Shown here piece after piece: positions 31,000 through 49,660 of a DNA stretch of 57,568 nucleotides. The notes under the pieces are model-generated. The model saw only the letters and a program-made list of their open reading frames with translations, made no database searches and had not been told where the DNA came from. The position numbers and the translations under genes were made by a program. The stretch covers positions 64,846 to 122,413 of the forward strand of contig JAJEFE010000011.1 of NCBI GenBank assembly GCA_022820625.1, written 5' to 3'. The stretch's first letter is position 1. Each line of letters opens with the position of its first letter. The DNA is from Gammaproteobacteria bacterium. GTDB lineage: Bacteria; Pseudomonadota; Gammaproteobacteria; Steroidobacterales; Rariloculaceae.

Positions 31000-31425
31000 T
31001 TACTCCGGCAACAGACGGATCATCGGATTCCGAAAGTAAACACGGCTGTCGGAGCCCACGGCCTCCAGGCCGATCGTGCCCCGGTGCAGACTGGCCGGTC
31101 CATCTGCATCTGCAGGTTCGGTGAATTCATTGACGGTCTCGCCATTCACTCTTACCGTTACGTTCTTGCCGTCAACCGTGATGTGGTAGTTGAACCATTC
31201 GTTATCGCCGTGTGGGGCAGTCTCTACCTCGCTTGCCCCAACCAGGCTGCCGGTCATGCTCTCACCGGCCCGGCTGGCGTTAATCTGGGCTTCATAACCA
31301 ACGCCAGGAGGTCCCTCCTCTTCGTAATGGGTATGAAAATAGACGCCTGAAGCCGACCCGGGATAGGTATAAACATCAACCTTGAATTCGAAATTCTTGA
31401 AATATCCGCCAGCGATCGGACCGTC
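31000..31425 (-). repeat. Left arm of a long inverted repeat (3' half of ThuA-DUF1080 copy A)
   Basis: Over this stretch the sequence is the reverse complement of about 49235-49660 with only scattered mismatches, including long identical runs around the INASRAGESMTGSLVG and DGKNVTVRVN coding segments. The 5' parts of the two genes are far more diverged. The arms enclose about 18 kb. Identity was judged by eye. Confidence 0.8.
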
Positions 31426-32490
31426 ATAGAACAGATTTCTTTGATCTCCCTCGACAATCAGGGTGTCGCCGTCAAGTCGGAACGATTCTCCGGCCGAGGT
31501 ATTGTCGACGGTCGGCCAGGCCATCTCTGTATCAAGCCTCCCATACCAGGAAGCAGACGTCCAGTTCACGACACCGCCGCTTTCAATCCAACCATTGAGT
31601 GTATCGTCCAGGAGGGATATCCAACCAAGCCCGCGTTCTCCTTCATATCCCGGGGCCGGCGAACCATCTTCTTCAAGTTTTCCTGCCGCCCAGAGCACGC
31701 TCGCTGCAACAAGATTCAAATTCGTATCCGAGCCCATCGAAGGATTATGGTGCCCCAGTGAACTGGCGAATACCCGAACGCCTTCGTATTCGTGTATCCA
31801 GGCTGTTTCAGTATAGGAGTGTGTCTCCACCGAATAGGCGTGAGTTAACGGAGTGGCGTTGTCATGTAAATCAACGATCAGATATAACTCGCCTGAAGGC
31901 GTCCGCCAGGAAGGAGGTTGGTATTTCATGATCGGGTGCTGCGGCTCCAGAACTTCGATCGTGTAGGGAGAGGTATTGGGATGATCTTCTTTCTCGTGGA
32001 CGTATGAAACAGCACCGGTAAAATCCCACCAGTCATCCGCTGCACCGTCCATTGCATATTGATAGAGATGGATGGGGCAGTGAAGCATGACGGCAGGTAA
32101 TTGATGCTCGACGTGCTCGGCGATGATTCCTCTTACATAGGCTCCATCTTTTACTTGAAGATTGCAGTGATTGTAGATTACAACGTCGAACTCTGCCGCC
32201 CAGTCATCCTCCAAATGACGGGAGAAATGGAAATCAGTTGATTCCATGGTAAGCGTATCTGCACCTTCATAGTCAGTCGTAATTTCGATGTTCGAAAGAC
32301 GTTCCAACAGTCCCTGTTCAATCTGGTCCTTTTGCGTTGCATAATCGTGCCAGGGACCCCCGCCGGTAATCATCAAGATTCTCAATGGATCTGTGTTCTG
32401 AGCTCCGGCGTATTGAAGCAGGCTGCCAGAAAAAACCAGCGTTAAAATAGAAAGGAGTATTTTCTTAAATACATACTTGGTCGTATTCAT
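31000..32490 (-). CDS. Secreted ThuA-DUF1080 (3-keto-disaccharide hydrolase-like) protein, copy A
   Basis: The 496-residue product starts at an ATG preceded by GAGGG and has a signal peptide ending AGAQ. The N-terminal ThuA domain has ILMITGGGPWHDYATQ and VMLHCPIHLYQY, with WIHEYEGVRVFASSLGHH. The C-terminal DUF1080 jelly roll begins LGWISLLDDTLNGW and ends YFRNPMIRLLPE. DUF1080 proteins hydrolyse or eliminate 3-keto-glycosides; ThuA is associated with trehalose and keto-sugar metabolism. It is a paralogue of 48182-49660 in the opposite orientation, most alike over the last ~420 bases. Base composition is lower in GC than the left flank. Confidence 0.85.
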   Translation of the reverse strand: MNTTKYVFKKILLSILTLVFSGSLLQYAGAQNTDPLRILMITGGGPWHDYATQKDQIEQGLLERLSNIEITTDYEGADTLTMESTDFHFSRHLEDDWAAEFDVVIYNHCNLQVKDGAYVRGIIAEHVEHQLPAVMLHCPIHLYQYAMDGAADDWWDFTGAVSYVHEKEDHPNTSPYTIEVLEPQHPIMKYQPPSWRTPSGELYLIVDLHDNATPLTHAYSVETHSYTETAWIHEYEGVRVFASSLGHHNPSMGSDTNLNLVAASVLWAAGKLEEDGSPAPGYEGERGLGWISLLDDTLNGWIESGGVVNWTSASWYGRLDTEMAWPTVDNTSAGESFRLDGDTLIVEGDQRNLFYDGPIAGGYFKNFEFKVDVYTYPGSASGVYFHTHYEEEGPPGVGYEAQINASRAGESMTGSLVGASEVETAPHGDNEWFNYHITVDGKNVTVRVNGETVNEFTEPADADGPASLHRGTIGLEAVGSDSRVYFRNPMIRLLPE

Positions 32491-32746
32491 TTATTGAGCC
32501 CTCGATTTTTATCTCTTAGGTTGAGTCACATCTTTGTGTTAGAGCAAGGTTCACAAAATACACAGCCCAGCCGTAACACGCAACCCGAAGCGGAGTAGAA
32601 ATTGCTGCCGGGCGCTTGGAGCTGGCACTGCCGGCCCGGCCGCCACCGAAAACCTCCTCGGCACAAGCTGCCCAGGCCACCGCCGTGTAGTGCAGACCCT
32701 TGGGGCCGGCTCATCGACAGATCAACAACTTAACCCCGATCTACCC

Positions 32747-32940: not shown

Positions 32941-32967
32941 TTACTCGTTAACTTCGTTCAGTAACAC

Positions 32968-34452: not shown

Positions 34453-34568
34453 CAGTCGATATCCCCCGGCAGGGACCCAGCGGCGAGGAGCAAGAATCCG
34501 ACGAGGGGCGCAAGCAGCCCCGAGTACGCGCCGAGCAGACCGATCAGGGCCGTGGCGACCCGACTCAT
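34452..34568 (-). CDS. Possible small membrane protein coupled to halogenase 1
   Basis: A 38-residue frame begins MSRVATALIGLLGAYSGL and is almost entirely one hydrophobic helix. It ends with TGA overlapping the halogenase ATG. The overlap and hydrophobicity are suggestive, but there is no clear ribosome-binding site and no equivalent precedes halogenase 2. It may be a truncated remnant of a membrane gene. Confidence 0.3.
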   Translation of the reverse strand: MSRVATALIGLLGAYSGLLAPLVGFLLLAAGSLPGDID

Positions 34569-34958
34569 TACCGGCTCATCACAGCCAGGAATTGCACGGT
34601 CCGCCCAACGCCATCCCCCGGCGCCCTGCCAGACGCCGGGGCGTGGGTTCTCCCAGAACCCAAACTGGAAGTCTGCCAAGCAGTTTGGTGGAACAAATTC
34701 GTGAAATGCATTAGAGAGAAGAATTGCTGTGACCCGCACGCTGGTTTATGGGGTGGGATATAGTACCCTGCGTTGGATTGGCATGCCGGGGGTTGTGCGA
34801 TGCGGGTTGCGGCGGGGAAATTGCTTTGTCGAAGGAAGAGCGCGTGAAGCTTGAGAGGTGGATTTCCACACCGCCCTACGTCCGTCACTCGGAGTACACC
34901 TTAACAACCTGTCCAAAAAAACGAGACCACCTCAACGATTCAATTTCTTGACGCGATC
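34569..34958. other. Gap between halogenase 1 region and methyltransferase
   Basis: No gene, RNA or recognised element could be supported in this 390-base stretch. Open frames are short and without family resemblance. The divergent promoters of the halogenase and methyltransferase genes must lie here. A GC-rich stem (CCCCGGCGCC...GGCGCCGGGG-like pairing around 34617-34652) is visible but imperfect. Confidence 0.3.
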
Positions 34959-35633
34959 ATGGACATCAAGCAACGGCTTAAGTCGTGGAACCGCGAAAAG
35001 TGGGAAAGGAAAAACCATGCGATGTATATCGTCCATGGCGAGAATCGATGGCCGTGGTTCAATGACCGACTCGATCCCGATATCGAAGAATTCTTTCGTG
35101 AGCGGAATTTGCTCCAACTCGACATCCTCGATCTCGGCACTTGCAGCGGATCGCAGGCGATGGAACTTGCCCGCAGGGGCCACCGGCTAGTAGGCACTGA
35201 TATTTCCGAGACCGCCATCAATCAGGCCAAACTCGCGCTCGGCGGGGAACAAGGCCTGCAAATCGAGTTTTTGCTCGACGATATTTCCGCTTCAAACCTG
35301 TCTGAGAACCGATTCGACCTCGTGCTCGATCGAGGTTGTTATCATTCGATTTGCATGTTCTATCACCACGAATACGTCGCCAGCATTAAACGGATTCTGC
35401 GGCCCGGCGGCACACTTCTGCTGAAAGTCATGAGCAGCGAGGAAGAGCGGTTCGTCAATTACGACAAGTTCGGCGACAAACTCATCCGGATGCCGTACCA
35501 TTTTGAAAAGAAACAAATTCTGGACCTGATTTCCCCGCATTTCGACATTGAGGAAATCAGGGATAGCTTCTTTTACAGCACCGTATTCGATCCTCCGGCC
35601 AAAGCCCGCTTCCTGATCGTCCGCAATACCTGA
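34959..35633 (+). CDS. Class I SAM-dependent methyltransferase
   Basis: The 224-residue protein has motif I LDLGTCSGSQAMELA, an acidic motif II at VGTDIS, motif post-I/III DLVLDRGCYHSI and RPGGTLLLKV. The architecture is that of small-molecule methyltransferases (tellurite/thiopurine-like). It is inserted between the intact halogenase 1 and a halogenase 5' remnant, so it could tailor the same compound (inference) or be a passenger of the rearrangement. Confidence 0.88.
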   Translation: MDIKQRLKSWNREKWERKNHAMYIVHGENRWPWFNDRLDPDIEEFFRERNLLQLDILDLGTCSGSQAMELARRGHRLVGTDISETAINQAKLALGGEQGLQIEFLLDDISASNLSENRFDLVLDRGCYHSICMFYHHEYVASIKRILRPGGTLLLKVMSSEEERFVNYDKFGDKLIRMPYHFEKKQILDLISPHFDIEEIRDSFFYSTVFDPPAKARFLIVRNT

Positions 35634-35708
35634 GCCTCGAAACGGATCGGCTTGGCACTTCGACTCGATGTCCCGCAACTCCCGCCAAGCCCGGATCTTG
35701 TCCGGCCG

Positions 35709-35783
35709 CGTGACCAGGCTCTAAGCTGTCAACCAACCAGCCGTACCGCCACCGGCGACGATTACGCGAATATTCTCCTCCAT
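35709..35783 (-). pseudogene. 5' remnant of a third halogenase gene
   Basis: Reading the minus strand from 35783 gives MEENIRVIVAGGGTAGWLTA, then a stop, then SLVTR: the first 25 codons of the halogenase with one nonsense codon where the intact genes have Tyr. Homology stops at about 35709. The sequence on the other side (35784-36007) matches the intergenic region between halogenase 2 and receptor 2, so this is the decayed halogenase of the receptor 1 unit. Confidence 0.85.
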
Positions 35784-36007
35784 CGAAGTGAGCGTATCAC
35801 GCGGGCAGGGGGTCGCACGTGGCGCGCGAGGACGGCTCGCAGGGCGCTAATGTTGCGCATTTGCTACACACTATTTTTTTCGGGTTTCGGCGGCTCAAGG
35901 CTTTCCTGACCAAGGCGAGGTGTGTTAAGTTCGCCCGCTAGATGTCGCCTTGGTCACGCTGGCGCGTGCATCGGGCGTACTCAGACTATGGTTAGAGGTG
36001 AAGGGAA
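35784..36007 (+). promoter_or_regulatory. Upstream region of receptor 1, homologous to that of receptor 2
   Basis: This stretch matches 40914-41201. Shared blocks include GCGGGCAGGGGG, TGTTGCGCATTTGCTACA, TTCGGCGGCTCAAGGCTT then CCTGACCAAGG, and CACGCTGGCGCGTGCA. The ribosome-binding site GAAGGGA sits just before the receptor ATG. It should contain the divergent halogenase/receptor promoters. I cannot assign -35/-10 boxes securely. Confidence 0.55.
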
Positions 36008-39000
36008 ATGAAGATGGGTGAAACCAAAACAACCATGCAGAAAACCAAATTGGCGACCGCCGTATCGGCAGCTTTGTCCATCATGGCCGGCCAGGCGAGT
36101 GCGCAGCAGGCTGGTGGCGAACTCGAGGAGGTCGTGGTCACCGGTATTCGCGGCAGTCTGCTGGCGGCCATGGATGTCAAGCGTGAGTCTTCAGGCGTGG
36201 TGGACGCCATTTCCGCCGAAGATATCGGCAAGTTCCCCGACACTAACCTGGCGGAGTCGCTGCAGCGCGTTACCGGCGTGTCCATCAACCGCGTCGAGGG
36301 CGAGGGTTCCGAGGTCACGATTCGCGGCTTCAGTGGCGACTTCAACATCGTGACCCTGAACGGCCGGCAGATGCCCGCGGCCGATGCCCGGGGCGTCTTC
36401 TTCGGCATCAACGCCAACATCAGAACCGGCGATTCGCGCTCCTTCGACTTTTCGAACCTCGCGTCCGAGGGAGTATCGGGTCTACAGGTGTACAAATCGG
36501 GCCGGGCCGGGGTGCCGTCCGGCGGTCTTGGCGGCACGATCAATATCCAAACCATTCAGCCACTGGAATCGGCCAACCAGTTTTCCATTGGCGCAAAAGC
36601 CCTCTCGGACTCCGGCGGTGGCACAACGCCGGAGATAAGCGGTCTGGGCAACTGGACGAACGATGAAGGCACCTTCGGCGTGTCCGCCTTCGGTTCCGTC
36701 CAGGAGCGCGAATTCTCGAATCGCACGGCGTTGCACAACAGCGGGCGCGGAATAGTCTGGCAGTTTCCCTTCAATCCGAACATCCCCGCATTCGCCAACG
36801 CCAACCTGGTCAACCCACCCGGCCCGGATCAACTGGCCGGCTTCCCGCATTCTGCGGCCCTCGCATACAGCGAGAGCTCGCGCGAGCGCACCAACGCCGC
36901 GCTGACCCTGCAGTGGGCGCCTTCGGACCGCATGACCGTTACCGCGGATGGCCTGTTCGCACGGAACGATCAGTTTGCAAAGAGTGCTTCGGATCTACCC
37001 TTCTGGGTCCGCCAGTTCGACTTTGTCGCCTTCAATGGCAACCCTGTCCTCAGTCAGCCGGACTTTTTGTCCGAGCCGCTCGTGTCCGGCGGCGGCAGCG
37101 ACTTCAGCCAGGCGGGCAAGGAGCTCCCTTTCCGGAACAGCTTGTTCGCGATGCGGGACGAGTTGAGTTCGTTCGGCCTCAACGTCGACTATCAGCTCAA
37201 CGACTCGCTGACGTTGAACTTCGACGCGGCCCATGGCAATGCGGTCGCCAAGGGCAATCACCCGAGTGGCGCCCTCATTGAAGGAACCTCCCTCGGCGGT
37301 CAGGCTGTCGCCGCCCACATCGTGGACTACCGCACTGAGATACCCAACGTCGCCCAGGCCATTGCGGACGGCTCTGGCCCCAGCACAACCATGGTCGGCG
37401 GCCGGGAGGTTACCTTCCCCGGCGGTAATGCGAATGGAATCTTCGAAAAGTCGGATCTCGGGCTCCAGTACATCATTCAGGAATTTGGCACCCAGGATAC
37501 CGTCATCGACCAGGCCAAGATGGCAGTCGCCTTCGACAACGGCGGTCCGGTCACGGCCAATTTCGGCGCGGGCTTTGTCAGCCACGAAATGCACTCGGTC
37601 TACGAGCGCTACCGGGACGAAATCGGCGGCTGGAACACCGGCTTCATCGGCGATATCGCGACGCTGATGGGGGAAGAAGTCATTGAAGACGTATGCATAA
37701 GCTGCCAGTTTGAGGATCACAACAATCAGTTTCTGACAGCGGACGAACTGGTCCGGGATTTCACCGCCGCCGGCGGAACGGTGGCCCCGGGCGCCAGTCT
37801 GCGACTTGTGGGCCAGGAAGCGTTCTTTATCGATCCGTTGGCGGTGGCGGAGGCCTTTGACGGCTTCGTCAACGGCGGCGGGGCACAATACGACTACAAC
37901 AACCGATCCACGGTAAGCATCGCCGACAACGTCATCACCGAGGACGTAGTGTCGCTATACGGCGAGGGCGTTCTGGATGGCGAAGTCGGCGGCAGGCCGA
38001 TGCAGGTCGTGGTCGGCCTGCGCTGGGAGCAGACGGACGTCGAATCCGTAACACTGCAGTCGGTTCCCATGTTCAAGAAATGGACATCGGACAATGACCT
38101 CGCCACGGTGTTCAGCTCGGACGTGCAGGCGGTGTCGCAGACGTTCGACTATGACAACTTGCTGCCGAGCCTCGACTTCTCGGTGGATGTCAACGACAAC
38201 CTGAAAGCGCGCGCCTCGTTCAGCACCACCATCGCGCGCGCGCCGTATAACAACATGTTCGTCACCACCAATGCCGGTAATCCGAGCACGGCGACGTACC
38301 TGGGCGGCGTCGCCACCGGCAGCAGGGGCAACGCGCAACTGGAGCCGCTGGAGTCCGACAACTTCGACCTGTCGCTGGAGTGGTACTACGGCGAGGGCAG
38401 CGCCTTTACGGTCGCCTTTTTCGACAAGTCGGTGAAGAACTTTATCGGCAACGAGCAGGTAACGACAAACCTGTTCGGCCTGCGCGATGTCACCAACGGA
38501 GCCCCGGGTACCCGCCTGGGCCAGGCCATCGACGCATTGAATGCTCATACCAAAGCAGATGGTACTTCAGCTGGGCTGACCGAGACGAACCTCTTCACCA
38601 TGACCGCGCTCATCGATAATGATGCGTGCCTTGAAAATGTAGTTTTTCAGGCGGGGCCAAATGCAGGGAATACTGTCGCTGGATCCGGCTCCATGGGATT
38701 CATCGACCCCGATGATGATGGGGGCGCCGCGCTGTCGTCCGACATCGCCACCGCGTGTGATATCGAGCCCAACTCGAACGATCCATTGATGAACTTTGTC
38801 GTTCAGCAGCCCACAAACCAGGCGAGCGCCAATATCCAGGGTCTGGAATTGAACTGGGTGCACTTCTTCACCGGCAACCTCAACGGCTTCGGCTTCCAGG
38901 CCAACTCGACCTTTGTCGACGGTGACATCGGCTACGATGTGCTCGCCAACCCGCACACCGAGGACCAGTTTGCCCTGACGGGCTTGTCGGACTCGTGGAA

Positions 39001-39298
39001 TCTCATGGGCTTCTACGAGAACGAAAGGTTCAGTGTGCGTTTGCACTACAACAACCGCGGTGAATTTCTGGCCAACACCAACGTCAGCCAACGCATTCCG
39101 CGGTTTGTCGACGAGTTCTCGCAGCTTGACTTCAGCGCCAGCTATGCGCCCACCGATAATCTGACGATTTTCCTGGAGGGCATCAACCTGACGGACGAAC
39201 CGATCGTCTTCCGCGGCCGCACGGACCAACAATACCAGTCCTTCCAGGAAGGCGACATGCGCCTGTACCTGGGTGCGCGGTACGTCTTCGCGAGGTAG
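36008..39298 (+). CDS. TonB-dependent receptor 1 (large, TIGR01782-like)
   Basis: The 1096-residue outer-membrane protein has a signal peptide ending ASAQ, then the TonB box EEVVVTGIRGSLLAAMDVKR. The plug domain has FPDTNLAESLQRVTGVSINR and SEVTIRGF, and QVYKSGRAGVPSGGLGGTINI. A long barrel ends YLGARYVFAR. Length and TonB-box region match the large carbohydrate-associated receptors of Xanthomonas/Caulobacter type (TIGR01782). It is paralogous to receptor 2, with the N-terminal 200 residues and C-terminal 500 most alike and several surface-loop regions divergent, as expected if ligand specificity differs. Halogenase 2 lies convergent downstream. Confidence 0.93.
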   Translation: MKMGETKTTMQKTKLATAVSAALSIMAGQASAQQAGGELEEVVVTGIRGSLLAAMDVKRESSGVVDAISAEDIGKFPDTNLAESLQRVTGVSINRVEGEGSEVTIRGFSGDFNIVTLNGRQMPAADARGVFFGINANIRTGDSRSFDFSNLASEGVSGLQVYKSGRAGVPSGGLGGTINIQTIQPLESANQFSIGAKALSDSGGGTTPEISGLGNWTNDEGTFGVSAFGSVQEREFSNRTALHNSGRGIVWQFPFNPNIPAFANANLVNPPGPDQLAGFPHSAALAYSESSRERTNAALTLQWAPSDRMTVTADGLFARNDQFAKSASDLPFWVRQFDFVAFNGNPVLSQPDFLSEPLVSGGGSDFSQAGKELPFRNSLFAMRDELSSFGLNVDYQLNDSLTLNFDAAHGNAVAKGNHPSGALIEGTSLGGQAVAAHIVDYRTEIPNVAQAIADGSGPSTTMVGGREVTFPGGNANGIFEKSDLGLQYIIQEFGTQDTVIDQAKMAVAFDNGGPVTANFGAGFVSHEMHSVYERYRDEIGGWNTGFIGDIATLMGEEVIEDVCISCQFEDHNNQFLTADELVRDFTAAGGTVAPGASLRLVGQEAFFIDPLAVAEAFDGFVNGGGAQYDYNNRSTVSIADNVITEDVVSLYGEGVLDGEVGGRPMQVVVGLRWEQTDVESVTLQSVPMFKKWTSDNDLATVFSSDVQAVSQTFDYDNLLPSLDFSVDVNDNLKARASFSTTIARAPYNNMFVTTNAGNPSTATYLGGVATGSRGNAQLEPLESDNFDLSLEWYYGEGSAFTVAFFDKSVKNFIGNEQVTTNLFGLRDVTNGAPGTRLGQAIDALNAHTKADGTSAGLTETNLFTMTALIDNDACLENVVFQAGPNAGNTVAGSGSMGFIDPDDDGGAALSSDIATACDIEPNSNDPLMNFVVQQPTNQASANIQGLELNWVHFFTGNLNGFGFQANSTFVDGDIGYDVLANPHTEDQFALTGLSDSWNLMGFYENERFSVRLHYNNRGEFLANTNVSQRIPRFVDEFSQLDFSASYAPTDNLTIFLEGINLTDEPIVFRGRTDQQYQSFQEGDMRLYLGARYVFAR

Positions 39299-39428: not shown

Positions 39429-40913
39429 TCAGTTCTGCGCCGGGCAGTACTGTTTTATAAAGTCATTGTGGTCAGGCAGCCTGGCAAGATTTTGATTTAC
39501 AAAAGCACTCAGCTTTCCAAGCTCTTGCTTTAATGCCTCCGGTGGCAATATACGACCGGCGCCGTGACGATGTTTCGGGAACAAGCCCTGCCCAATCATC
39601 ACCTGAACCCAGGAGTTCGTGCGAAACAAACTTACCAAGTCCGGCCACACATGGCCGTTTTCCCCGAAGATCTCCATGCGGTGAGCGAGGCTGTCCGGGA
39701 TATCCATGGTCCGATAATAATTCCAGAATTCACTGTCTTCCCGTTGCGTCTGCTTGTAGTGCAGGATGATAAAATCGCGCACTGCCTCCCATTCAATCCG
39801 GGTTTCGCGATTAAAGTGATCGGCCAGCGGCGCCATTGCGCCTGAAAACGGGAAGAGCTTCATCAGGCGTATCAGCGAAGTGGTAATCAAGTGAATGCTG
39901 GTCGACTCAAGTGGCTCGAGAAAGCCGCTCGATAACCCTATGGCAACACAGTTCTTGCGCCACGCATTTTTACGGAATCCGGTTTTGAATCTCAGGGGGC
40001 GGGGCTCGGTGATGGTCTTTCCCGTGATATTGCCGAGCAAAGTTGCACGGGCATCGTCGTCGGAACAAAACCGGCTGCTGTAAACAAGGCCATTGCCGGT
40101 GCGGCTTTGCAGGGGGATACGCCACTGCCACCCGGAGGCATGTGCAATGGCGCGGGTATAGGGGGGAGGCGGCTCGATACTTGTCGTCTGTACTGCCAGA
40201 GCGCGGTCGGCGGCCAGCCAATGGCTCCAGTCCTCGTATTCGACACCCAGTGCACCGCCGATCAGAAGGCCTCCGAAGCCGGTGCAATCAATGAAGAAAT
40301 CACCGGCGACCCGTCTGTCATGCTCCAGCTCCAGCGATCGGATATCGCCCGTCACCGGATCAACGGTGATTTCGCTGATCTTGCCTTCGACTCGCCGGAC
40401 GCCGAGCGATTCGCTTTTTCGCCGCAGAAATCCGGCGTAGGCCGTTGCGTCCAGGTGATAGGCGTACGCCAGCGGCGTCTCACCTGCTTTAACCGCGAAT
40501 TTGCCGGCGTTCGCCGCCTTCAATTCGAGGCAATAGTCCCCCAGGCTGCCGCCAAAACCATTGGCGCGCGCTTCCATCCAGTACTGGTGGAATCCCGCCA
40601 TCCAGGTACTTTGCCCGGCGACACCGAACGTGTGAATGTAGCTATCGCCCGGCGCGCCCCAATGGTCAAAAAAAATGCCGAGCTTGAAGGTTGCCTGGGT
40701 CGCGCGCATGAACTCGCGCTCGTCGACCTTGAATATATGGTGAAATTTGCGCATGGTGGGGACGGTCGCCTCGCCCACGCCCACGGTTCCGATCTGGTCG
40801 GATTCGACCAGGGTGATTTCGAGCAGGTTACCCAGCCGCGTGACCAGGCTGTAAGCTGTCAACCAACCAGCCGTTCCGCCGCCGGCGACGACTACGCGAA
40901 TATTCTCCTCCAT
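39429..40913 (-). CDS. Flavin-dependent (tryptophan-type) halogenase, copy 2
   Basis: This 494-residue enzyme has exactly the length of copy 1 and differs at scattered residues only (for example IRNWG versus intact motifs are unchanged). FAD site GGGTAGW, GVGEATVP, Lys77, WQWRIP and FLEPLEST are all present. The ATG at 40913 was preferred over one four codons earlier because the codons between are not conserved in the remnant at 35783. Divergent from receptor 2 across a 288-base region, it forms the intact version of the halogenase-receptor unit. Both copies being motif-complete implies both are under selection or the duplication is recent. Confidence 0.92.
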   Translation of the reverse strand: MEENIRVVVAGGGTAGWLTAYSLVTRLGNLLEITLVESDQIGTVGVGEATVPTMRKFHHIFKVDEREFMRATQATFKLGIFFDHWGAPGDSYIHTFGVAGQSTWMAGFHQYWMEARANGFGGSLGDYCLELKAANAGKFAVKAGETPLAYAYHLDATAYAGFLRRKSESLGVRRVEGKISEITVDPVTGDIRSLELEHDRRVAGDFFIDCTGFGGLLIGGALGVEYEDWSHWLAADRALAVQTTSIEPPPPYTRAIAHASGWQWRIPLQSRTGNGLVYSSRFCSDDDARATLLGNITGKTITEPRPLRFKTGFRKNAWRKNCVAIGLSSGFLEPLESTSIHLITTSLIRLMKLFPFSGAMAPLADHFNRETRIEWEAVRDFIILHYKQTQREDSEFWNYYRTMDIPDSLAHRMEIFGENGHVWPDLVSLFRTNSWVQVMIGQGLFPKHRHGAGRILPPEALKQELGKLSAFVNQNLARLPDHNDFIKQYCPAQN

Positions 40914-41201: not shown

Positions 41202-44200
41202 ATGGCTGAGACCAAAGCAACCATGCAAAAAACCAAATTGGCTACCGCCGTATCGGCGGCTTTGTCCATCATGGCCGGCCAGGCGAATGCGCAGCAGGCC
41301 GGTGGCCAACTCGAGGAGATCGTGGTTACCGGCATTCGCGGCAGTTTGACGGCGGCCCTGGATGTCAAGCGTGAGTCTTCAGGCGTTATGGACGCCATTT
41401 CCGCGGAAGACATCGGTAAGTTTCCCGACACCAACTTGGCGGAATCGCTGCAGCGCGTTACCGGGGTGTCCATCAACCGCGTCGAGGGCGAGGGTTCCGA
41501 GGTCACGATTCGCGGCTTCGGTGGCGCCTTCAACATCGTGACCCTGAACGGCCGCCAGATGCCTGCGGCCAACTCCACGCCTGGCTTCTTCGGCCTCAAC
41601 AACAACCGTGGCGGCAGCGGCCAGTCGCGCTCCTTCGACTTCTCGAACCTCGCATCCGAGGGGGTATCGGGCCTGCAGGTGTACAAATCGGGCCGGGTCG
41701 GGGTGCCGTCCGGCGGTCTTGGCGGCACGATCAATATCCAAACCATCCAGCCCCTGGAATCGGCTAACCAGTTTTCCGTTGGCGCAAAAGCCCTCTCGGA
41801 CTCCGGCGGTGGCACGACGCCGGAGATAAGCGGTCTGGGCAGCTGGACGAACGATGCGGGCACCTTCGGCGTGTCCGCCTTCGGTTCCGTCCAGGAGCGC
41901 GAATACTCGAATCGCACGGCGATTACCGGCGGCTCGGGCGGGCTCCAATGGAGGTTTCCCTTCGCTCACGACGGCCCTTATCAGAACGCCACCGTGATCA
42001 ATCCACCCGGCCCCGATCAACTGACCGGGTTCCCGAATTCTGCGACCTACACGTACGCCGAGGGCACGCGCGAGCGCACCAATGCCATGGTGACCCTGCA
42101 GTGGGCGCCCTCGGAGCGCATGACCATTACTGCGGATGGGGTGTTCGCGCAGAATGACCAGAGTTCAAAGAATATTGGCGATCTGCCCTTCTGGCTCCGC
42201 CAGTTCGATTTTGTCGCATTCGATGACCACCCTGCCCTCAGCCTCCCGGACTGGTTGTCCGAGCCGGGGGTGGCCGACGCCAGCGACTTCAGCCTGTCGG
42301 GCAAGGAACTCCCTTTCCGGAATGGCTTGTTCGCGTTGCGAGACGAGTTGTCTTCGTTCGGCCTCAATTTCGACTATCAGATCAATGACTCGTTGACGTT
42401 GAACGTCGATGCGTCCAATGCCGGTACGTCCGCCGGCGGCAATCACCCGAGTGGCTCTGTCTATGAAGCAGTCTCCCTCGGCGGTCAGGCTGTCGCTGCC
42501 CACATCGTGGACTACCGCACCGAGATACCCAACGTCATCCAGGCCATCGCCGATGGCTCGGGCCCCACCACCGCCATGGTCGGCGACAGGATGGTTACCT
42601 TCCCCGGCGGCAATGCGAATGGCATCTTTGAAAAGTCGGATCTCGGCGCCCAGTGGATCCTGCGACAATTTGGTGAACAGGATACCACCATCGACCAGGC
42701 CCAGATTAAACTCGAACTCGACAACGGCGGCCCGGTCAGGGCTAATTTCGGCGCGGGCTTTTTCAACCACGAAATGCACAGGGTCGAAGAGAATTACCGG
42801 GACGCAATCGGTGATTGGAACACTTTCTACATTGGCGATGTCGTGGCGCTGATGGGAGAAGATGCCATCGAAACCATATGCATCAGCTGCCAGTTTGACG
42901 ACCACGACAATCTGATCCTGTCGACGGACGAAATCGTCCGGGATTTCACCGCCGCCGGAGGAACCGTAACCCCGGGCGCCAGTCTGCGGCTCGTGGGCCA
43001 GGAAGCGTTCTATGTCGACCCGTTAGAGTTAGCGGACGCCTATGACGGCTTCGTCGAAGTCCGCGGGAGAAGATTCGACAAAGACAGCCGAGGCTTCAGA
43101 AGCAGAAATGATCGCGTCATCAGCGAAGACATCGTGTCGCTTTACGGCGAGGGGATCCTGGATGGCGAAGTCGCCGGCAGGCCGATGCAGGTCGTGGCCG
43201 GGCTGCGCTGGGAGCAGACGGACGTCGAATCCATAGCGGTGCAGTCGATCCCCCTGGCCAAAGTATGGACATCGGACAACGACCACGACACGGTATTCAG
43301 CCCGGAACCAGAGGCGGTGGTGCAGACGTTCAGCTATGACAACTTGCTGCCGAGCCTCGACTTCTCGGTGGATGCCACCGATAACCTGAAAGCACGCGCC
43401 TCGTTCAGCAAGACCCTCGCGCGCGCGCCGTATAACAGCATGTTCATCGATACCACAGCCGGTAGTCCGGGCGGTGTGACGTACCTGGGTGCCGTCGCCA
43501 CCGGTAGCAGGGGTAACGCGCAACTGTTGCCGCTGGAGTCCGACAACTTTGACCTGTCGCTGGAGTGGTACTACGGCGAGGGCAGTGCCGTCACGGTCGC
43601 CTTCTTCGACAAGTCGGTAAAGAACTTTGTCGGCAACGAGCAGATAACGACAAACCTGTTCGGCCTGCGCAATGTCACCAGCGGACGTCCGGGCACGCGC
43701 TCGGGTCAGGCCGTCGCGGAATTGGAGGCACGTGGTTACCCCGTGACCGAGACGAGGCTCTTCACCATGACCGCCATCCTCGATAATCCGCAGGATTTCC
43801 CAGGAGGTGCCGATGATTACATCGACCCCTCTGAGCCGGGGGGCGCCGACCAGTCATCTGACGTCGCCAGCATCTATGATATCCCACCCAATTCAGACGA
43901 TCCATTGTTGGACTTTATCGTCCAGCAGCCCACGAATCAGGCGAGCGCCAATATCAACGGCGTGGAATTGAACTGGGTGCACTTCTTTACCGGAAACCTC
44001 AACGGCTTCGGCTTCCAGGCCAACTCGACCTTTGTCGACGGAGATATCGGCTACGATGTGTATGCCAACCCGAACACCGAGGAACAGTTTGCCCTGACGG
44101 GCTTGTCGGACTCGTGGAATCTCGGACTCTTCTACGAGAACGAACGGTTCAGCGTGCGTTTGCACTACAACAACCGCGGTAGATTTCTGGCCAACACCAA

Positions 44201-44420
44201 CGTCGGCCAACGCATTCCACGGTTTGTTGACGCGTTCTCGCAGATTGACTTCAGCGCCAGCTATGCTGCCATGGATAATCTGACCATTTTCCTGGAGGGC
44301 ATCAATCTGACGGACGAACCGATCATCTTCCGCGGCCGAACGCATAAACAAGTACAGTCCTACCATGAAGGCGACATGCGCCTGTATCTGGGTGCGCGGT
44401 ACGTCTTCGCGGCGAGGTAG
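41202..44420 (+). CDS. TonB-dependent receptor 2 (large, TIGR01782-like)
   Basis: The 1072-residue protein repeats the receptor 1 layout: signal peptide ending ANAQ, TonB box EEIVVTGIRGSLTAALDVKR, plug with FPDTNLAESLQRVTGVSINR, and a barrel ending YLGARYVFAAR. It diverges from receptor 1 mainly between residues ~230 and ~290, ~570 and ~650 and ~870 and ~920, i.e. extracellular-loop candidates, while barrel strands are conserved. It is divergent from halogenase 2 and is followed by a stem-loop like that after receptor 1. Confidence 0.93.
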   Translation: MAETKATMQKTKLATAVSAALSIMAGQANAQQAGGQLEEIVVTGIRGSLTAALDVKRESSGVMDAISAEDIGKFPDTNLAESLQRVTGVSINRVEGEGSEVTIRGFGGAFNIVTLNGRQMPAANSTPGFFGLNNNRGGSGQSRSFDFSNLASEGVSGLQVYKSGRVGVPSGGLGGTINIQTIQPLESANQFSVGAKALSDSGGGTTPEISGLGSWTNDAGTFGVSAFGSVQEREYSNRTAITGGSGGLQWRFPFAHDGPYQNATVINPPGPDQLTGFPNSATYTYAEGTRERTNAMVTLQWAPSERMTITADGVFAQNDQSSKNIGDLPFWLRQFDFVAFDDHPALSLPDWLSEPGVADASDFSLSGKELPFRNGLFALRDELSSFGLNFDYQINDSLTLNVDASNAGTSAGGNHPSGSVYEAVSLGGQAVAAHIVDYRTEIPNVIQAIADGSGPTTAMVGDRMVTFPGGNANGIFEKSDLGAQWILRQFGEQDTTIDQAQIKLELDNGGPVRANFGAGFFNHEMHRVEENYRDAIGDWNTFYIGDVVALMGEDAIETICISCQFDDHDNLILSTDEIVRDFTAAGGTVTPGASLRLVGQEAFYVDPLELADAYDGFVEVRGRRFDKDSRGFRSRNDRVISEDIVSLYGEGILDGEVAGRPMQVVAGLRWEQTDVESIAVQSIPLAKVWTSDNDHDTVFSPEPEAVVQTFSYDNLLPSLDFSVDATDNLKARASFSKTLARAPYNSMFIDTTAGSPGGVTYLGAVATGSRGNAQLLPLESDNFDLSLEWYYGEGSAVTVAFFDKSVKNFVGNEQITTNLFGLRNVTSGRPGTRSGQAVAELEARGYPVTETRLFTMTAILDNPQDFPGGADDYIDPSEPGGADQSSDVASIYDIPPNSDDPLLDFIVQQPTNQASANINGVELNWVHFFTGNLNGFGFQANSTFVDGDIGYDVYANPNTEEQFALTGLSDSWNLGLFYENERFSVRLHYNNRGRFLANTNVGQRIPRFVDAFSQIDFSASYAAMDNLTIFLEGINLTDEPIIFRGRTHKQVQSYHEGDMRLYLGARYVFAAR

Positions 44421-44488: not shown

Positions 44489-44697
44489 TGCGCGTTTCTG
44501 GAACGAGCGCTCGATTTGAAAAAATGGAACCGGCCGATTCGCGGATGGAAGGCAGCGCTCAATCAATTCCTCATTTTATTCGAAGATCGGGCGCCAGTCT
44601 GATTTGATGCTTCCTCTCCTGTTTCCCGCAAGATCAAAAGGATAGAGTCTATGCACGCGGAATCTACAACGAATTTGGAAAAAAGGCAGAACGTAAA

Positions 44698-45874: not shown

Positions 45875-48136
45875 ATGCAAAAGCAACTCTATTTATTCTC
45901 TCCCCTGACCTTCTTTTCAGTCCTGATAGCATTCGGCTGGGTGGGTAATGATACATCGGCCCAAACAAGTACCGCGGGTCAAAAAAGCAGGCTGAATAAT
46001 TTTGTTGACTGGGCTACTTATCGCGGTGATCAGGAAGGAACTGGATACTCTTCTCTAAGCCAGATTACAGTCGAAAATGTTCAGTTATTGGAAGAAGTGT
46101 GGACCTACGATACAAGGGATCTTCTCCGGCCGGGGATGTCATCCAACCCGATTATTATTGAAGGTGTGATGTATTTTGCTGATTCTGAATTGAATCTTGT
46201 TGCCCTGGATGCAGCAACCGGAGAAGAACTCTGGCTGTTTGATCTGTCGGAACATCATTCAAGAGGAGATTATCTCGACAGTGGAATCATGAGAGGGTCG
46301 GTGTATTGGGAAGATGAGAATGGAAACAACTCAAGACTCTTCCATCTTACGAAAGATCTTGTCTGGGCAATTAACCCGGACGACGGCACACTTATAGAGT
46401 CGTTTGGTGACGGCGGGTATATTGATTTAAAGGAAAATCATGTTTGGCCTGCTCACCTGCTGGAAAATAAAATAACGAACACCTCGCCTCCCGTAATCTA
46501 TGATGACCATTTGATTTTGGATTCAAATGTATTCGAAGGAAGAGAAGATCCCCCTGGTAACATCAGGTCCTTTAACGTGTTAACCGGGGAGTTCGAATGG
46601 AGATTTCACACTATTCCCCTGGAAGGTCAGCCCGGGTATGAGACTTGGGAGTGGGAAGATGACATGATTTACGGGGGCGCCAACTCATGGGGTGGTTTTA
46701 CCGTTGATGAAGAAAGAGGCTGGGTATTTGCCGCTACGGGTTCAGCCACCGGTGGAATCCATGGAGGTGGCGGTGCGAGACCTGGCATGAACCTCTTCTC
46801 GAATTCCGTTTTGGCCATTGATGCAGAGACTGGGGAATTGCAATGGTATTTTCAAACGATGCACCACGATATTTGGGATTATGATATCGCTCCTGCACCG
46901 ATGCTGGCTACCATTACGCAAGATGGTGAAGAACGAGATGTGGTCGTTCAAACAGGGAAACAGGGTAAGGTATTTGTATTTGACCGGGATACCGGAGAAT
47001 CTCTATTTCCCATTGTAGAAAAACCGGTACCGACAGACGCGGCACTCGGTGAAGTTCCTTATCCAACTCAACCATGGCCCTTGAAACCTGACCCACTTGT
47101 AAGAACGGCAGTTTATGAGTCCGATTTGACCACCATCACACCCGAGTCTCACGCATCTGCACTGGAGCAATTCAAAAGACTGAGAGCCGGACCGATGTAT
47201 ACACCTCCAAGTGTAGAAGGGACTATCGTACAGCCCGGAATTCACGGAGGGAACGAATGGGGCGGTCCGGCTTTTGATCCGGAGACAAATATTGCCTACG
47301 TAAACGTAAATGACTTCCCATTCATACTAACGCTGGACATCATACATCCTGATCAATTCGCAGATTTGACGGAGACGGCCCAAGGGAGAACAATTTATCT
47401 TGCAGCATGTGCGGTTTGTCATGGCGCTGATCGAGAAGGAGGGATAGCTGTTGCTCTCGATAGTACAACGCTCAGTGCTGGCGAACTGAGAACTGTCATT
47501 TCACAAGGCGTAAATGCGATGCCAGCCTTCCCGGCCTTTGACGAAGATGAATTGGATAATGTTGTAGCCTTTCTTCAAAGTGAACCTGGTACAGAAACAT
47601 CCACATCCGATATCGATTTAAGTGACGAAAATCTGACGTGGAGTGGAGGAGAGGGCGAATTGAGTTGGTCCACATCAACACCACAGTATGTACCTCAGTT
47701 GGAATACTTCACAGACCATATGGGCTATCATGCAATTCAACCACCATGGGGGAAACTCGTTGCGGTAGATGTTGCAAGAGGTGACATTTTATGGTCGGTT
47801 CCACTCGGAGAATATCCCGGATTGGTAGAAATGGGGATTCGAAATACCGGTGCTGAAAACTTCGGCGGAATGGCTGTTACACAAGGAGGTTTGATTTTTA
47901 TAGCAGCAACGGAAGATAACCGGTTCAGGGCATTTGATAAGACCAGCGGCGTGCTCTTGTGGGAATTCGAGATGGATTCACCTGGCTTTTCGACGCCCTC
48001 CACCTACGAAATTGATGGAAGACAATATGTTGTGATAGTAGCAGGCGGCGGCGGCGGCCGATATCGTTCGCCTGTAACACAGGATATTGGACGGAGGGTC
48101 CATGCATTTGCTCTACCGGAATCGGAAATTCAATAA
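45875..48136 (+). CDS. PQQ-dependent dehydrogenase with internal haem c site
   Basis: The 753-residue product has a signal peptide ending SAQ and the eight-bladed quinoprotein pattern with repeated ALDAATGEELW-type tryptophan-docking motifs (AIDAETGELQWYFQ, VDVARGDILWSVPLG, AFDKTSGVLLWEF). HHDIWDYDIAPAPML is typical of membrane glucose/quinate dehydrogenase-like enzymes. A CAVCHG haem c motif (Cys512) sits in a domain inserted before the last blades, followed by VNAMPAFPAFDEDELDNVVAFLQ with an axial Met. It would oxidise a sugar or alcohol in the periplasm and pass electrons to its own haem. It has an AT-rich composition. Confidence 0.9.
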   Translation: MQKQLYLFSPLTFFSVLIAFGWVGNDTSAQTSTAGQKSRLNNFVDWATYRGDQEGTGYSSLSQITVENVQLLEEVWTYDTRDLLRPGMSSNPIIIEGVMYFADSELNLVALDAATGEELWLFDLSEHHSRGDYLDSGIMRGSVYWEDENGNNSRLFHLTKDLVWAINPDDGTLIESFGDGGYIDLKENHVWPAHLLENKITNTSPPVIYDDHLILDSNVFEGREDPPGNIRSFNVLTGEFEWRFHTIPLEGQPGYETWEWEDDMIYGGANSWGGFTVDEERGWVFAATGSATGGIHGGGGARPGMNLFSNSVLAIDAETGELQWYFQTMHHDIWDYDIAPAPMLATITQDGEERDVVVQTGKQGKVFVFDRDTGESLFPIVEKPVPTDAALGEVPYPTQPWPLKPDPLVRTAVYESDLTTITPESHASALEQFKRLRAGPMYTPPSVEGTIVQPGIHGGNEWGGPAFDPETNIAYVNVNDFPFILTLDIIHPDQFADLTETAQGRTIYLAACAVCHGADREGGIAVALDSTTLSAGELRTVISQGVNAMPAFPAFDEDELDNVVAFLQSEPGTETSTSDIDLSDENLTWSGGEGELSWSTSTPQYVPQLEYFTDHMGYHAIQPPWGKLVAVDVARGDILWSVPLGEYPGLVEMGIRNTGAENFGGMAVTQGGLIFIAATEDNRFRAFDKTSGVLLWEFEMDSPGFSTPSTYEIDGRQYVVIVAGGGGGRYRSPVTQDIGRRVHAFALPESEIQ

Positions 48137-48181
48137 AGTATTGGAGGTGGAGATCGAGCAATAATTGGAGGAGGTTCTGTA

Positions 48182-49660
48182 ATGAACAAGTTCGCGCATA
48201 CAGGTAAAAGGACAACTCGTGCGAGTTTAGTGGCACTGTTTTCGGTTGGGTTTTTAACCCATCATGGTATAGCTGCTTCGCAGGATACCGATCCGCTGGA
48301 AGTGCTGATGATTACCGGTGGGGGGCCTTTTCACGACTACTACACCCAGAAGAGACAGCTTGAAGAGGGGCTCACCGATCGCATCGGCAATATCGTGTTT
48401 ACCATTGACCATAACGAGGGTGAAAGTAAACAGGATATGACCTTCAAACATGAAACCCTGTTGAACGATGAGTGGGCACAGCAGTTCGATCTGGTGTTAT
48501 ACAACAACTGTAATCTCGATATGGGCGATGCTGACCATGTTGAACAGATCATGAATGCCCATGCCGAGCACCAGGTGCCTGCCGTATTGCTGCACTGCCC
48601 GATGCACCTGCATCGGACCACTACCACGGCATGGTACGACTTTACCGGAGCCGTCTCCTATCATCATGAAGTTGTTCGTGTCCCTTTTACGATAGAAGTG
48701 CTCGAACCGAATCATCCGATCATGGTCAATTTCCCCGGGACCTGGCGGACTCCGGAGGGAGAGTTGTACATGCCTTTCGAGTTGAAGGACACTGCCATCC
48801 CGCTGGCGCGTGCCTACAGCGTGGAAGCCGCTGAATTCTTTCCCATAGCCTGGACCCACGAATACAAAGGGGTTCGGGTGTTCGCCAGCACGCTGGGTCA
48901 CCACACGCCGACCATGGGCGCGGATGTGAACTTGAATATGGTAGCGGCCGGCCTGCTGTGGGCAGCCGGCAAGCTTGACGACAATGGGCAACCGTTGGAA
49001 GGATATTCAGGCGAGCGGGGACTGGGATGGGTCTCCCTGCGGGACGGGGCGACCCTCAACGGCTGGCGCGACACTCTGACGACGAACTACGCTGAAATGG
49101 AATGGTTCGAACAAGTGGATGTCTGGCCAACGAAACAGAACATGGGTACCGTGGCCTTTCAACTTGTCCCCCATGAAGTGGATCCGAATGACATTGTTGT
49201 CGAGGGTCCGCCGAGCTCCCTGTTCTATGCGGGGCCCATTGACGGCGGTGATTTCAGAAATTTCGAATTCAAGGTGGATGTGTACACCTATCCCGGGTCG
49301 GCTTCAGGGATCTATTTTCATACCCGTTACAAGGCGGAGGGAGCTCCCAACTTTGGTTATGAAGCCCAGATCAACGCCAGCCGGGCCGGTGAGAGCATGA
49401 CCGGCAGCCTGGTTGGGGTTAGCGAGGTGGAGACGGCCCCACACGGCGATAACGAATGGTTCAACTACTACATCAGGGTTGACGGCAAGAACGTAACGGT
49501 AAGAGTGAATGACGAGACCGTCAACGAATTCACCGAACCTGCGGATGCGGATGGACCGGCCAGACTCAACCGGGGCACGATCGGCCTGGAGTCCGTGGGC
49601 TCCGACAGCCGTGTTTACTTCCGGAATCCGATGATTCGTCTGTTGCCGGATAATAATTAG
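48182..49660 (+). CDS. Secreted ThuA-DUF1080 (3-keto-disaccharide hydrolase-like) protein, copy B
   Basis: The 492-residue product starts after a strong GGAGGAGG and has a signal peptide. ThuA domain: VLMITGGGPFHDYYTQ, VLLHCPMHLHR, WTHEYKGVRVFASTLGHH. The DUF1080 domain starts GLGWVSLRDGATLNGW and ends YFRNPMIRLLPD. It follows the PQQ dehydrogenase by 45 bases. Composition shifts from AT-rich at the 5' end to GC-rich in the 3' half, where it also closely matches copy A in inverted orientation, suggesting recombination or conversion between the two genes. Confidence 0.87.
   Translation: MNKFAHTGKRTTRASLVALFSVGFLTHHGIAASQDTDPLEVLMITGGGPFHDYYTQKRQLEEGLTDRIGNIVFTIDHNEGESKQDMTFKHETLLNDEWAQQFDLVLYNNCNLDMGDADHVEQIMNAHAEHQVPAVLLHCPMHLHRTTTTAWYDFTGAVSYHHEVVRVPFTIEVLEPNHPIMVNFPGTWRTPEGELYMPFELKDTAIPLARAYSVEAAEFFPIAWTHEYKGVRVFASTLGHHTPTMGADVNLNMVAAGLLWAAGKLDDNGQPLEGYSGERGLGWVSLRDGATLNGWRDTLTTNYAEMEWFEQVDVWPTKQNMGTVAFQLVPHEVDPNDIVVEGPPSSLFYAGPIDGGDFRNFEFKVDVYTYPGSASGIYFHTRYKAEGAPNFGYEAQINASRAGESMTGSLVGVSEVETAPHGDNEWFNYYIRVDGKNVTVRVNDETVNEFTEPADADGPARLNRGTIGLESVGSDSRVYFRNPMIRLLPDNN
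49235..49660 (+). repeat. Right arm of the long inverted repeat (3' half of ThuA-DUF1080 copy B)
   Basis: This is the counterpart of 31000-31425 on the opposite strand, with long identical blocks such as GACGGCAAGAACGTAACGGT. Together the arms could support inversion of the intervening segment. Confidence 0.8.

What the first reader, a model, noticed from the sequence alone, without database searches (positions are those of the whole stretch)
31000..49660. Candidate halogenase-TonB receptor-keto-sugar island
Two motif-complete flavin-dependent halogenases, two ~1,080-residue TonB-dependent receptors, a methyltransferase, a Gfo/Idh/MocA dehydrogenase, a PQQ-haem dehydrogenase and two ThuA-DUF1080 proteins lie together, followed by a xylose operon. 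Families (established): DUF1080 acts on 3-keto-glycosides, Gfo/Idh/MocA makes keto-sugars, halogenases act on aromatics. Inference: uptake and oxidative deglycosylation of a phenolic glycoside whose aglycone is halogenated. I do not know of a described pathway with this set.
Basis: partly seen in the sequence, partly recalled or inferred. Interest (0 to 1): 0.75.

Follow-up and report, generated by a model that had tools for sequence, protein, structure and literature searches.

The report
Halogenase-linked xyloside uptake island
This bacterial gene island joins two near-identical halogenase genes and two outer-membrane receptor genes to a conserved operon that is predicted to import and oxidatively cut xylose-bearing compounds, and it offers a testable lead on what this group of halogenases, whose natural substrates are unknown, likely act on.

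Summary
In detail: every gene family named is present. The two halogenases (92% identical) and two TonB receptors (77%) are copies of one divergent unit. The neighbourhood is conserved: in 396 sampled genomes of the order this halogenase clade occurs in 11, the Gfo/Idh/MocA orthologue in 12, both in 9. A relative without this clade (G155) keeps receptor-Gfo-MFS-PQQ-three ThuA-DUF1080-XylB-XylA-epimerase on one strand, so the core is a glycoside operon feeding xylose catabolism and the halogenase is an accessory. The ThuA-DUF1080 model matches solved 3-keto-glycoside eliminase/hydratases. The halogenase belongs to the BrvH/Xcc4156 group (native substrate unknown); its clade nests among receptor-SapC-cupin-halogenase genes, lacks SapC and cupin, and in other genomes lies beside ThuA-DUF1080 or nucleoside-hydrolase genes. 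Aglycone halogenation stays unproven: related halogenases accompany unrelated glycan loci with the same catalytic and sandwich residues. New variant of a known kind.

The parts
31000..32490 (-). ThuA-DUF1080 fusion 1 (3-keto-glycoside enzyme by homology, leader peptide), downstream of FDH1 on the same strand
   Evidence: PF06439 98.9 bits, PF06283 50.3 bits; model of this protein matches ThuA-like and 3-keto-glycoside eliminase/hydratase structures; FDH followed by ThuA-DUF1080 also in L157, L159, L234
32968..34452 (-). flavin-dependent halogenase FDH1 (BrvH/Xcc4156 group)
   Evidence: PF04820 605 bits; best solved relative 6y1w (Xcc4156), 556 bits; K77, E336 present
34453..35697 (.). segment with class I SAM methyltransferase (34959-35633 +) lying between FDH1 and the halogenase relic; genus-level insertion, probably not core
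   Evidence: MT seen only in G000, G001, G005 loci among those fetched
35698..35784 (-). truncated third halogenase start (relic)
   Evidence: 34367-34453 repeated at 35698-35784, 89.7%; longer relic in G005
36008..39298 (+). TonB-dependent receptor 1
   Evidence: TIGR01782 601.8 bits (cut-off 310)
39429..40925 (-). flavin-dependent halogenase FDH2
   Evidence: PF04820 594.6 bits; 92% identical to FDH1
40926..41201 (.). 276-bp divergent intergenic region FDH2|TBDR2, part of the duplicated unit
41202..44420 (+). TonB-dependent receptor 2
   Evidence: TIGR01782 577.3 bits
44698..45822 (+). Gfo/Idh/MocA dehydrogenase, no leader
   Evidence: PF01408 86.6 bits; AF2 pLDDT 87.9 and Foldseek matches to glucose-fructose oxidoreductase, a phthalate dihydrodiol dehydrogenase, GH109 and others
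45875..48136 (+). PQQ dehydrogenase with haem-c domain
   Evidence: PF01011 567.7 bits, PF13442 50.1 bits; CAVCH at residue 512
48182..49660 (+). ThuA-DUF1080 fusion 2
   Evidence: PF06439 100.5 bits, PF06283 64.1 bits
49742..51253 (+). FGGY kinase (xylulokinase by context)
51250..52599 (+). xylose isomerase
   Evidence: TIGR02630 680.6 bits (cut-off 533)
52607..53632 (+). aldose 1-epimerase
   Evidence: PF01263 245.7 bits
53668..55005 (-). FG-GAP repeat protein, leader peptide; lies near the module in several relatives
55141..57342 (-). haem-c lipoprotein with CarboxypepD_reg domain (below Pfam cut-off); its relative is directly downstream of the halogenase in G111

Best explanation
The core of this region is a conserved operon that is predicted to import a xylose-bearing glycoside through TonB-dependent receptors and to cut it by oxidative 3-keto chemistry, and the two near-identical halogenases are an accessory pair that would halogenate an indole-like aromatic group of that imported compound. 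Shown here: gene content, co-occurrence, gene order in relatives, the nesting of the halogenase clade among receptor-SapC-cupin-halogenase genes, intact catalytic residues and purifying selection. Inferred: (1) the receptors bind the glycoside; (2) the periplasmic PQQ-haem dehydrogenase (or, in the relative G143, a GMC plus gluconate-2-dehydrogenase-subunit-3 pair) makes the 3-keto sugar; (3) the exported ThuA-DUF1080 proteins release the aglycone and a keto-sugar; (4) MFS or ABC carriers bring products in, the cytoplasmic Gfo enzyme reduces or oxidises the keto-sugar, and xylose isomerase and xylulokinase take pentose into central metabolism; (5) the cytoplasmic FADH2-dependent halogenase acts on the imported aromatic part, with bromide or chloride from the medium. 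Step 5 is the least certain (about one in three); steps 1-4 together about three in five.
For: Order sample of 396 genomes (own included): halogenase clade (76% identity or more) in 11, Gfo orthologue (63% or more) in 12, both in 9, Fisher p 2e-14, not corrected for kinship. Among 117 genomes (own included) the Gfo orthologue was found in 4, and these 4 are the only ones with a PQQ orthologue of 75% or more; they also hold receptors of 60% or more. G155 carries TBDR-Gfo-MFS-PQQ-ThuA-ThuA-ThuA-XylB-XylA-epimerase on one strand. Xylose isomerase is in 12 of 14 genomes with any part of the module and in 13 of 112 relatives without it, p 2e-8, kinship ignored, and on the Gfo contig in 6 of 12 Gfo genomes. 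A XylR-type regulator cluster neighbours Gfo in 5 planctomycete or Gimesia loci, one member Pfam-checked. Halogenase directly upstream of ThuA-DUF1080, 39-42 bp, in L157, L159, L234. Of 44 public halogenase clusters of 74% or more with a longest contig of 9 kb or more, 9 share that exact length with a ThuA-DUF1080 cluster; 0 of 29 more distant ones do; chance mean 0.05. The ThuA-DUF1080 model matches 3-keto-glycoside eliminase/hydratases.
Against: G155 (99% complete) has the core and no member of the halogenase clade, only a 48% halogenase on another contig (its core contig ends inside the receptor); G272 and G300 also lack it but are 85 and 82% complete. G001 and G208 have the halogenase and no Gfo hit. 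The same-genus G005 has no XylA/XylB at the locus (only the epimerase) and its xylose isomerase is 72% identical elsewhere; only 7 of the 14 module genomes have a xylose isomerase of 85% or more. Catalytic residues and the sandwich residues H94, F96, W435 are shared with halogenases in SapC/cupin receptor operons; by my cut-offs 13 positions separate the two sets and none is catalytic, which speaks for one common substrate rather than a cargo-specific aglycone. I saw no aromatic-degradation family among the 79 proteins scanned with Pfam. The sugar identity rests on gene neighbours only. Gfo is common in Bacteroidota and Planctomycetota without detectable halogenase, receptor or ThuA-DUF1080 homologues nearby.
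Confidence: 0.37

Rival explanations
1. The halogenase is a receptor-locus enzyme whose substrate is the same throughout the BrvH/Xcc4156-like family (a small indole-like molecule, or a Trp residue of a peptide or protein) and has nothing to do with the glycoside's aglycone; it rides with whichever sugar locus the receptor serves.
For: Of 79 loci given to the script, 70 had a halogenase ORF in my ORF set; of these 70 (module loci included) 54 have a receptor found by an HMM seeded with TBDR2 in the stretch and 50 within 3 kb, often 44-160 bp away on the same strand. The host's own other halogenases sit with GH3/GH2 and with GH97/GH43/sulfatase genes; three named isolates opened of 23 plasmid records show receptor-SapC-cupin-halogenase (Sphingomonas), GH3-receptor-halogenase (Catenovulum) and receptor-halogenase-GH95 (Asticcacaulis). 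Shared catalytic and sandwich residues. A peptide substrate was suggested for BrvH and Xcc4156 (PMC7336383, passages).
Against: This clade has 0 of 12 genes with SapC or Cupin_8 within 6 kb, 4 of 12 with a ThuA-DUF1080 homologue and 4 of 12 with a nucleoside hydrolase homologue, against 0 of 99 for the last two among the other halogenases; in G117 and G119 it lies 21 and 16 kb from the receptor but directly beside ThuA-DUF1080.
Confidence: 0.33
2. The halogenase modifies a heteroaromatic N-glycoside (nucleoside-like compound): in several relatives its immediate neighbours are nucleoside hydrolase, ribose/nucleoside-type ABC transporters and PfkB kinases.
For: Nucleoside hydrolase 64-96 bp from the halogenase in L043, L233, L158 and 3.6 kb away in L044; Bmp-type binding protein, two permeases and a second nucleoside hydrolase downstream in L159; MFS-PfkB-ADP-ribosylglycohydrolase next to it in L158.
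Against: No nucleoside hydrolase among the 29 window ORFs scanned; these genes may be a second pathway sharing the island.
Confidence: 0.13
3. Two unrelated gene sets, a sugar operon and a halogenase-receptor unit, lie together by chance or by shared mobility and are not functionally linked.
For: Patchy distribution across families; duplications, a relic and an inserted methyltransferase show a fluid locus.
Against: Repeated linkage in different gene orders and strong co-occurrence.
Confidence: 0.1

Closest known systems
BrvH (6frl) and Xcc4156 (6y1w) flavin-dependent halogenases
   Same: Among the closest solved relatives (446 and 556 bits); same catalytic Lys/Glu and GWxW motif; native substrate unknown (PMC7336383, passages; PMC5945002, passages, says indole may not be BrvH's natural substrate)
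   Different: The window clade sits in a 3-keto-glycoside/xylose island and lacks the SapC and cupin partners of its sister genes L235 and L236
Caulobacter LacABC plus DUF1080 periplasmic 3'-ketolactose route (PMC9007349, passages)
   Same: Leader-bearing DUF1080 protein beside an oxidising sugar dehydrogenase; genetic evidence there that lacABC also matters on salicin, a phenolic glucoside
   Different: Here the oxidant beside DUF1080 is a PQQ-haem protein (a GMC plus subunit-3 pair was seen in L072), DUF1080 is fused to ThuA, and xylose genes follow
Bacteroides BT2157-type 3-keto-glycoside eliminase/hydratase (3osd, 8tda, 9fbe)
   Same: Fold match
   Different: Fused to an N-terminal ThuA domain; 17-18% sequence identity in these three matches
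TonB receptor glycan loci with an FDH in Sphingomonas, Asticcacaulis and Catenovulum plasmids
   Same: TonB-dependent receptor with PF04820-type halogenase
   Different: FDH here is divergent to the receptor, duplicated, and tied to a 3-keto route

Membership tests
Flavin-dependent halogenase, BrvH/Xcc4156 group | PF04820 domain over the curated cut-off with catalytic Lys and Glu-Ser | tested here: met
Flavin-dependent halogenase, BrvH/Xcc4156 group | closer to BrvH/Xcc4156 than to tryptophan halogenases | tested here: met
   556, 487 and 446 bits against 283 or less
Flavin-dependent halogenase, BrvH/Xcc4156 group | halogenates indoles, prefers bromide | not testable with these tools
   needs purified enzyme
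TonB-SapC-Cupin_8-FDH operon | SapC and Cupin_8 genes within 6 kb of the FDH | tested here: not met
   0 of 12 genes of the clade; sisters L235 and L236 have both; so the island works in a receptor setting but is not this operon type
3-keto-glycoside (DUF1080) pathway | DUF1080 protein with the 3-keto-glycoside eliminase/hydratase fold | tested here: met
3-keto-glycoside (DUF1080) pathway | glycoside 3-dehydrogenase encoded with it | tested here: inconclusive
   Gfo and PQQ genes present but specificity unknown; GMC plus Gluconate_2-dh3 pair seen in L072, not looked for elsewhere
Xylose catabolism | xylose isomerase equivalog plus FGGY kinase in the operon | tested here: met
   same run in G155
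TonB-Xanth-Caul receptor (TIGR01782) | score over the NCBIfam cut-off 310 | tested here: met
   601.8 and 577.3 bits

The most novel reading that the evidence does not exclude
A catabolic halogenase: the enzyme halogenates the heteroaromatic part of an imported N- or O-glycoside so that halide serves as an activating or leaving group, making halogenation a step of nutrient scavenging rather than of natural-product synthesis.
Probability: 0.1. Interest if true: 0.88.

Novelty: new variant of a known kind. Interest (0 to 1): 0.56.

Why it matters
The native substrates of BrvH and of three Xanthomonas halogenases are stated to be unknown (PMC7336383, passages). This clade has different partners from its sisters, 3-keto-glycoside and xylose genes instead of SapC and cupin, so a comparison of one enzyme from each side, in the presence of defined glycosides, can decide whether the substrate follows the sugar cargo or is common to the whole family. 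It also extends the 3-keto route to what is probably a xylose-bearing substrate.

Tried and rejected
Rejected: two independently acquired halogenases (they are 92% identical copies). Rejected: methyltransferase as a pathway enzyme (seen in same-genus genomes only among the loci fetched). Rejected: Gfo as the certain maker of the 3-keto-glycoside (no leader; its AF2 model matches many sugar dehydrogenases and a phthalate dihydrodiol dehydrogenase about equally). Tried without result: shared operator palindromes in the island's intergenic stretches (a perfect 20-bp palindrome between TBDR1 and FDH2 and imperfect ones elsewhere, no shared operator seen); PDB sequence relatives of the receptor or of ThuA-DUF1080 at E 0.001 (none) and of the haem lipoprotein at E 0.1 (two weak hits); a class-wide sample of 369 genomes (at E 1e-190 or better only the host genome); plasmid records (23 records, all under 60% identity). 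Paper searches found no description of this gene set: 0 papers in 19, 20, 29, 82 and 105; two each in 18 and 83, three different papers, of which PMC11337851 was looked at in passages (halogenase transcripts and a receptor in separate contexts) and the other two only as listings. PMC8269204 (passages) holds no mention of TonB. Most subscription papers are not in that library. A recalled notion that TonB receptor sugar loci with FDH, SapC and cupin genes were described by others could not be checked here.
Full report
Setting. The window is G000:C115:64846-122413, ending at the contig end, of a 4.56-Mb draft genome. The five titled relatives of this locus are MAGs labelled Woeseiaceae (two), Gammaproteobacteria (two) and Proteobacteria (one).

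Observation. Domain scans confirm the listed genes and coordinates. Self-comparison shows that the halogenases and receptors are two copies of one unit: 40832-44495 (start of FDH2, 276-bp divergent spacer, TBDR2) is repeated at 35702-39361 with 81.6% identity, and FDH1 and FDH2 match over 1501 bp at 93.2%. In copy 1 the halogenase start next to TBDR1 is only a relic (35698-35784); a 1.2-kb segment with the methyltransferase lies between it and the complete FDH1. FDH1-FDH2 dN/dS is 0.18, TBDR1-TBDR2 0.60, Gfo against G111 0.06. In 60-residue blocks the receptor copies are 80-95% identical over the first 240 residues and 47-53% in blocks 241-300 and 841-900, a pattern expected if loops that meet the ligand have diverged (inference).

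Halogenase family. Nearest solved relatives are Xcc4156 (6y1w, 556 bits), 9luq (487) and BrvH (6frl, 446); tryptophan halogenases score 283 or less. K77, E336, W262 and W264 are present in 122 of 122 sequences (2 window + 120 public). H94, F96 and W435, which I equate from memory of PrnA with the residues that sandwich the indole ring, are shared by the clade and its SapC- or cupin-linked relatives (89 against 16 sequences; 114 columns nearly invariant in both, 13 separating). PMC5945002 (passages) says that indole may not be BrvH's natural substrate; PMC7336383 (passages) says that native substrates of BrvH and three Xanthomonas enzymes are unknown and mentions a peptide hypothesis.

Neighbourhood conservation. 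Among 117 genomes (host and relatives) the Gfo orthologue was found in 4 (G000, G005, G086, G111); the same 4 have PQQ orthologues of 75% or more, the next best being 44%, receptors of 60% or more (G001 too) and halogenases of 84% or more (G001 too). In an even sample of 396 genomes of the order, halogenases of 76% or more occur in 11 and Gfo of 63% or more in 12, with 9 shared (Fisher p 2e-14, which ignores kinship). Misses: G001 and G208 have the halogenase only; G155, G272 and G300 have Gfo only. Layouts differ: window type (FDH2 divergent to receptor, FDH1 upstream of ThuA-DUF1080); L043 and L233 (FDH, nucleoside hydrolase, ABC transporter, receptor, Gfo); L044 (FDH, ABC transporter, nucleoside hydrolase, receptor; Gfo on another contig of G086); L158 (nucleoside hydrolase-FDH); L157, L159 and L234 (ABC-PTE-M20-BtpA-PfkB-FDH-ThuA/DUF1080-MBL, names from the Pfam scan of L159); L232 (FDH divergent to a UPF0261 operon). 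In G117 a single 62-kb contig holds XylB-XylA-epimerase, FDH-ThuA, nucleoside hydrolase, receptor, MFS, Gfo and the start of PQQ; the halogenase lies 21 kb from the receptor and 27 kb from Gfo there, 16 and 21 kb in G119. G117, G118 and G119 are the genomes G179, G143 and G149 of the order sample (same places) and were counted once.

The core without the halogenase. G155 shows receptor-Gfo-MFS-PQQ-three ThuA-DUF1080-XylB-XylA-epimerase on one strand, then a LacI-like gene on the other strand and FG-GAP; the contig ends inside the receptor. Its only halogenase found is 48% identical and on another contig. So the xylose genes continue this gene run and the halogenase is not needed for it. Xylose isomerase is found in 12 of 14 genomes with any part of the module and in 13 of 112 relatives without it, and on the Gfo contig, 4 to 45 kb away, in 6 of 12 Gfo genomes. 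Against this: only 7 of the 14 have a xylose isomerase of 85% or more, the others 68-72% or none, which is no closer than in relatives without the module; and G005 has only the epimerase at the locus.

Gfo outside the order. One scan of genome contigs gave 80 kept loci of 570 confirmed: 5 proteobacterial with receptor and PQQ, 4 of them with ThuA-DUF1080; in the other 75, mostly Bacteroidota and Planctomycetota, tblastn at 1e-8 found no halogenase, receptor or ThuA-DUF1080 homologue, and a PQQ homologue in 3. There the commonest neighbour clusters are a ThuA-DUF7133-cupredoxin protein (57 loci), an AP_endonuc_2 protein (53 loci) and an AraC-type regulator (39 loci), and in 5 loci an AraC-type regulator with a XylR N-terminal domain; each cluster was named from one scanned member. 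A neighbour in a Gimesia MAG fuses FG-GAP, DUF7133, cytochrome c and DUF1080 domains.

Context of the halogenase. For 111 halogenase genes with local context (tblastn with one to three query proteins per family): the clade (12 genes) has a receptor within 6 kb in 7, ThuA-DUF1080 in 4, nucleoside hydrolase in 4, SapC 0, Cupin_8 0; the other 99 have a receptor in 71, SapC in 35, Cupin_8 in 35, ThuA-DUF1080 0, nucleoside hydrolase 0. Some stretches are cut by contig ends, so absences can be false. A maximum-likelihood tree of 71 rows (63 of the 111: those at 40% identity or more plus three outgroup rows; and 8 public proteins) puts the 12 on one side of a branch in all of 200 bootstrap trees when the ungrouped public rows are set aside (100/98); the fork that splits off the nearest public row (P0074, 79%) has 82/94. 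The next rows with known layout outside are L235 and L236 (receptor-SapC-Cupin_8-FDH; 100/100 for the whole group). The layout around the public rows in between (66-72%) is unknown, so the change of partners cannot be placed more closely. Public clusters: 9 of 44 halogenase clusters of 74% or more (longest contig 9 kb or more) share an exact longest-contig length with one of the listed ThuA-DUF1080 clusters, against 0 of 29 more distant clusters and 0.05 on average by shifted lengths; a contig length of 34,054 with the name Halieaceae occurs for halogenase, ThuA-DUF1080 and Gfo. Only the best 120 of each search were listed.

Biochemistry. AF2 of ThuA-DUF1080 (pLDDT 77.7) matches ThuA-like proteins and solved 3-keto-glycoside eliminase/hydratases (further down the list are jelly-roll matches without functional meaning). 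AF2 of Gfo (pLDDT 87.9) matches glucose-fructose oxidoreductase, a phthalate dihydrodiol dehydrogenase, GH109, aldose-aldose oxidoreductase, DgpA and others at similar scores, so its reaction is not resolved. By eye, ThuA1, ThuA2, PQQ, FG-GAP and the haem lipoprotein have leader peptides and Gfo and FDH have none (no predictor was run). In Caulobacter, LacABC with a DUF1080 protein is proposed to oxidise lactose in the periplasm and cut 3'-ketolactose there (PMC9007349, passages); by analogy the PQQ-haem protein is the likelier periplasmic oxidant here. L072 has a GMC oxidoreductase and a gluconate-2-dehydrogenase subunit 3 homologue upstream of the receptor.

Verdict. The halogenase is tied to the island in 9 of 12 genomes with Gfo but is dispensable in at least one nearly complete genome, and its catalytic and sandwich residues are those of halogenases in other receptor loci. 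I put aglycone halogenation and a family-wide common substrate about level.

Noticed in passing
window 35698-35784; L040 12297-12560: Truncated halogenase start upstream of TBDR1; a longer relic in the same-genus genome G005.
   Followed up: partly
window 34959-35633: Methyltransferase segment inserted at the duplication junction; related copies in G001 and G005.
   Followed up: partly
window 32500-32960: Stretch between FDH1 and ThuA1 with odd GC-rich sequence that looks by eye like remnants of a mobile or deleted gene.
   Followed up: no
window 39332-39351: Perfect 20-bp palindrome between the converging TBDR1 and FDH2 genes, likely a terminator.
   Followed up: no
L006 (G000:C115:12000-31900), L007 (G000:C122:20500-40400): Three more halogenases of the host: two in a receptor-FDH-SapC-Cupin_8-FDH-LacI-GH3 locus, one beside GH97, GH43 and sulfatases.
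   Followed up: partly
G081:C51:101675-102964 and G093:C45:56427-57716: Other, distant halogenases also lie next to or within a few kb of xylose isomerase genes, in genomes without the Gfo orthologue.
   Followed up: no
L232 10698-19316; L157; L159; L234: UPF0261 gene (with PEP_hydrolase, FAD_binding_2, SBP, permeases, PfkB and SDR genes in L232) beside this halogenase clade; function unknown.
   Followed up: partly
window 55141-57342; L043 87-2273: Haem-c lipoprotein with CarboxypepD_reg domain, directly downstream of the halogenase in G111.
   Followed up: partly
L082 11182-16410: 1742-aa fusion of FG-GAP, DUF7133, cytochrome c and DUF1080 next to a Gfo orthologue and a XylR-type regulator in a Gimesia MAG.
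   Followed up: no
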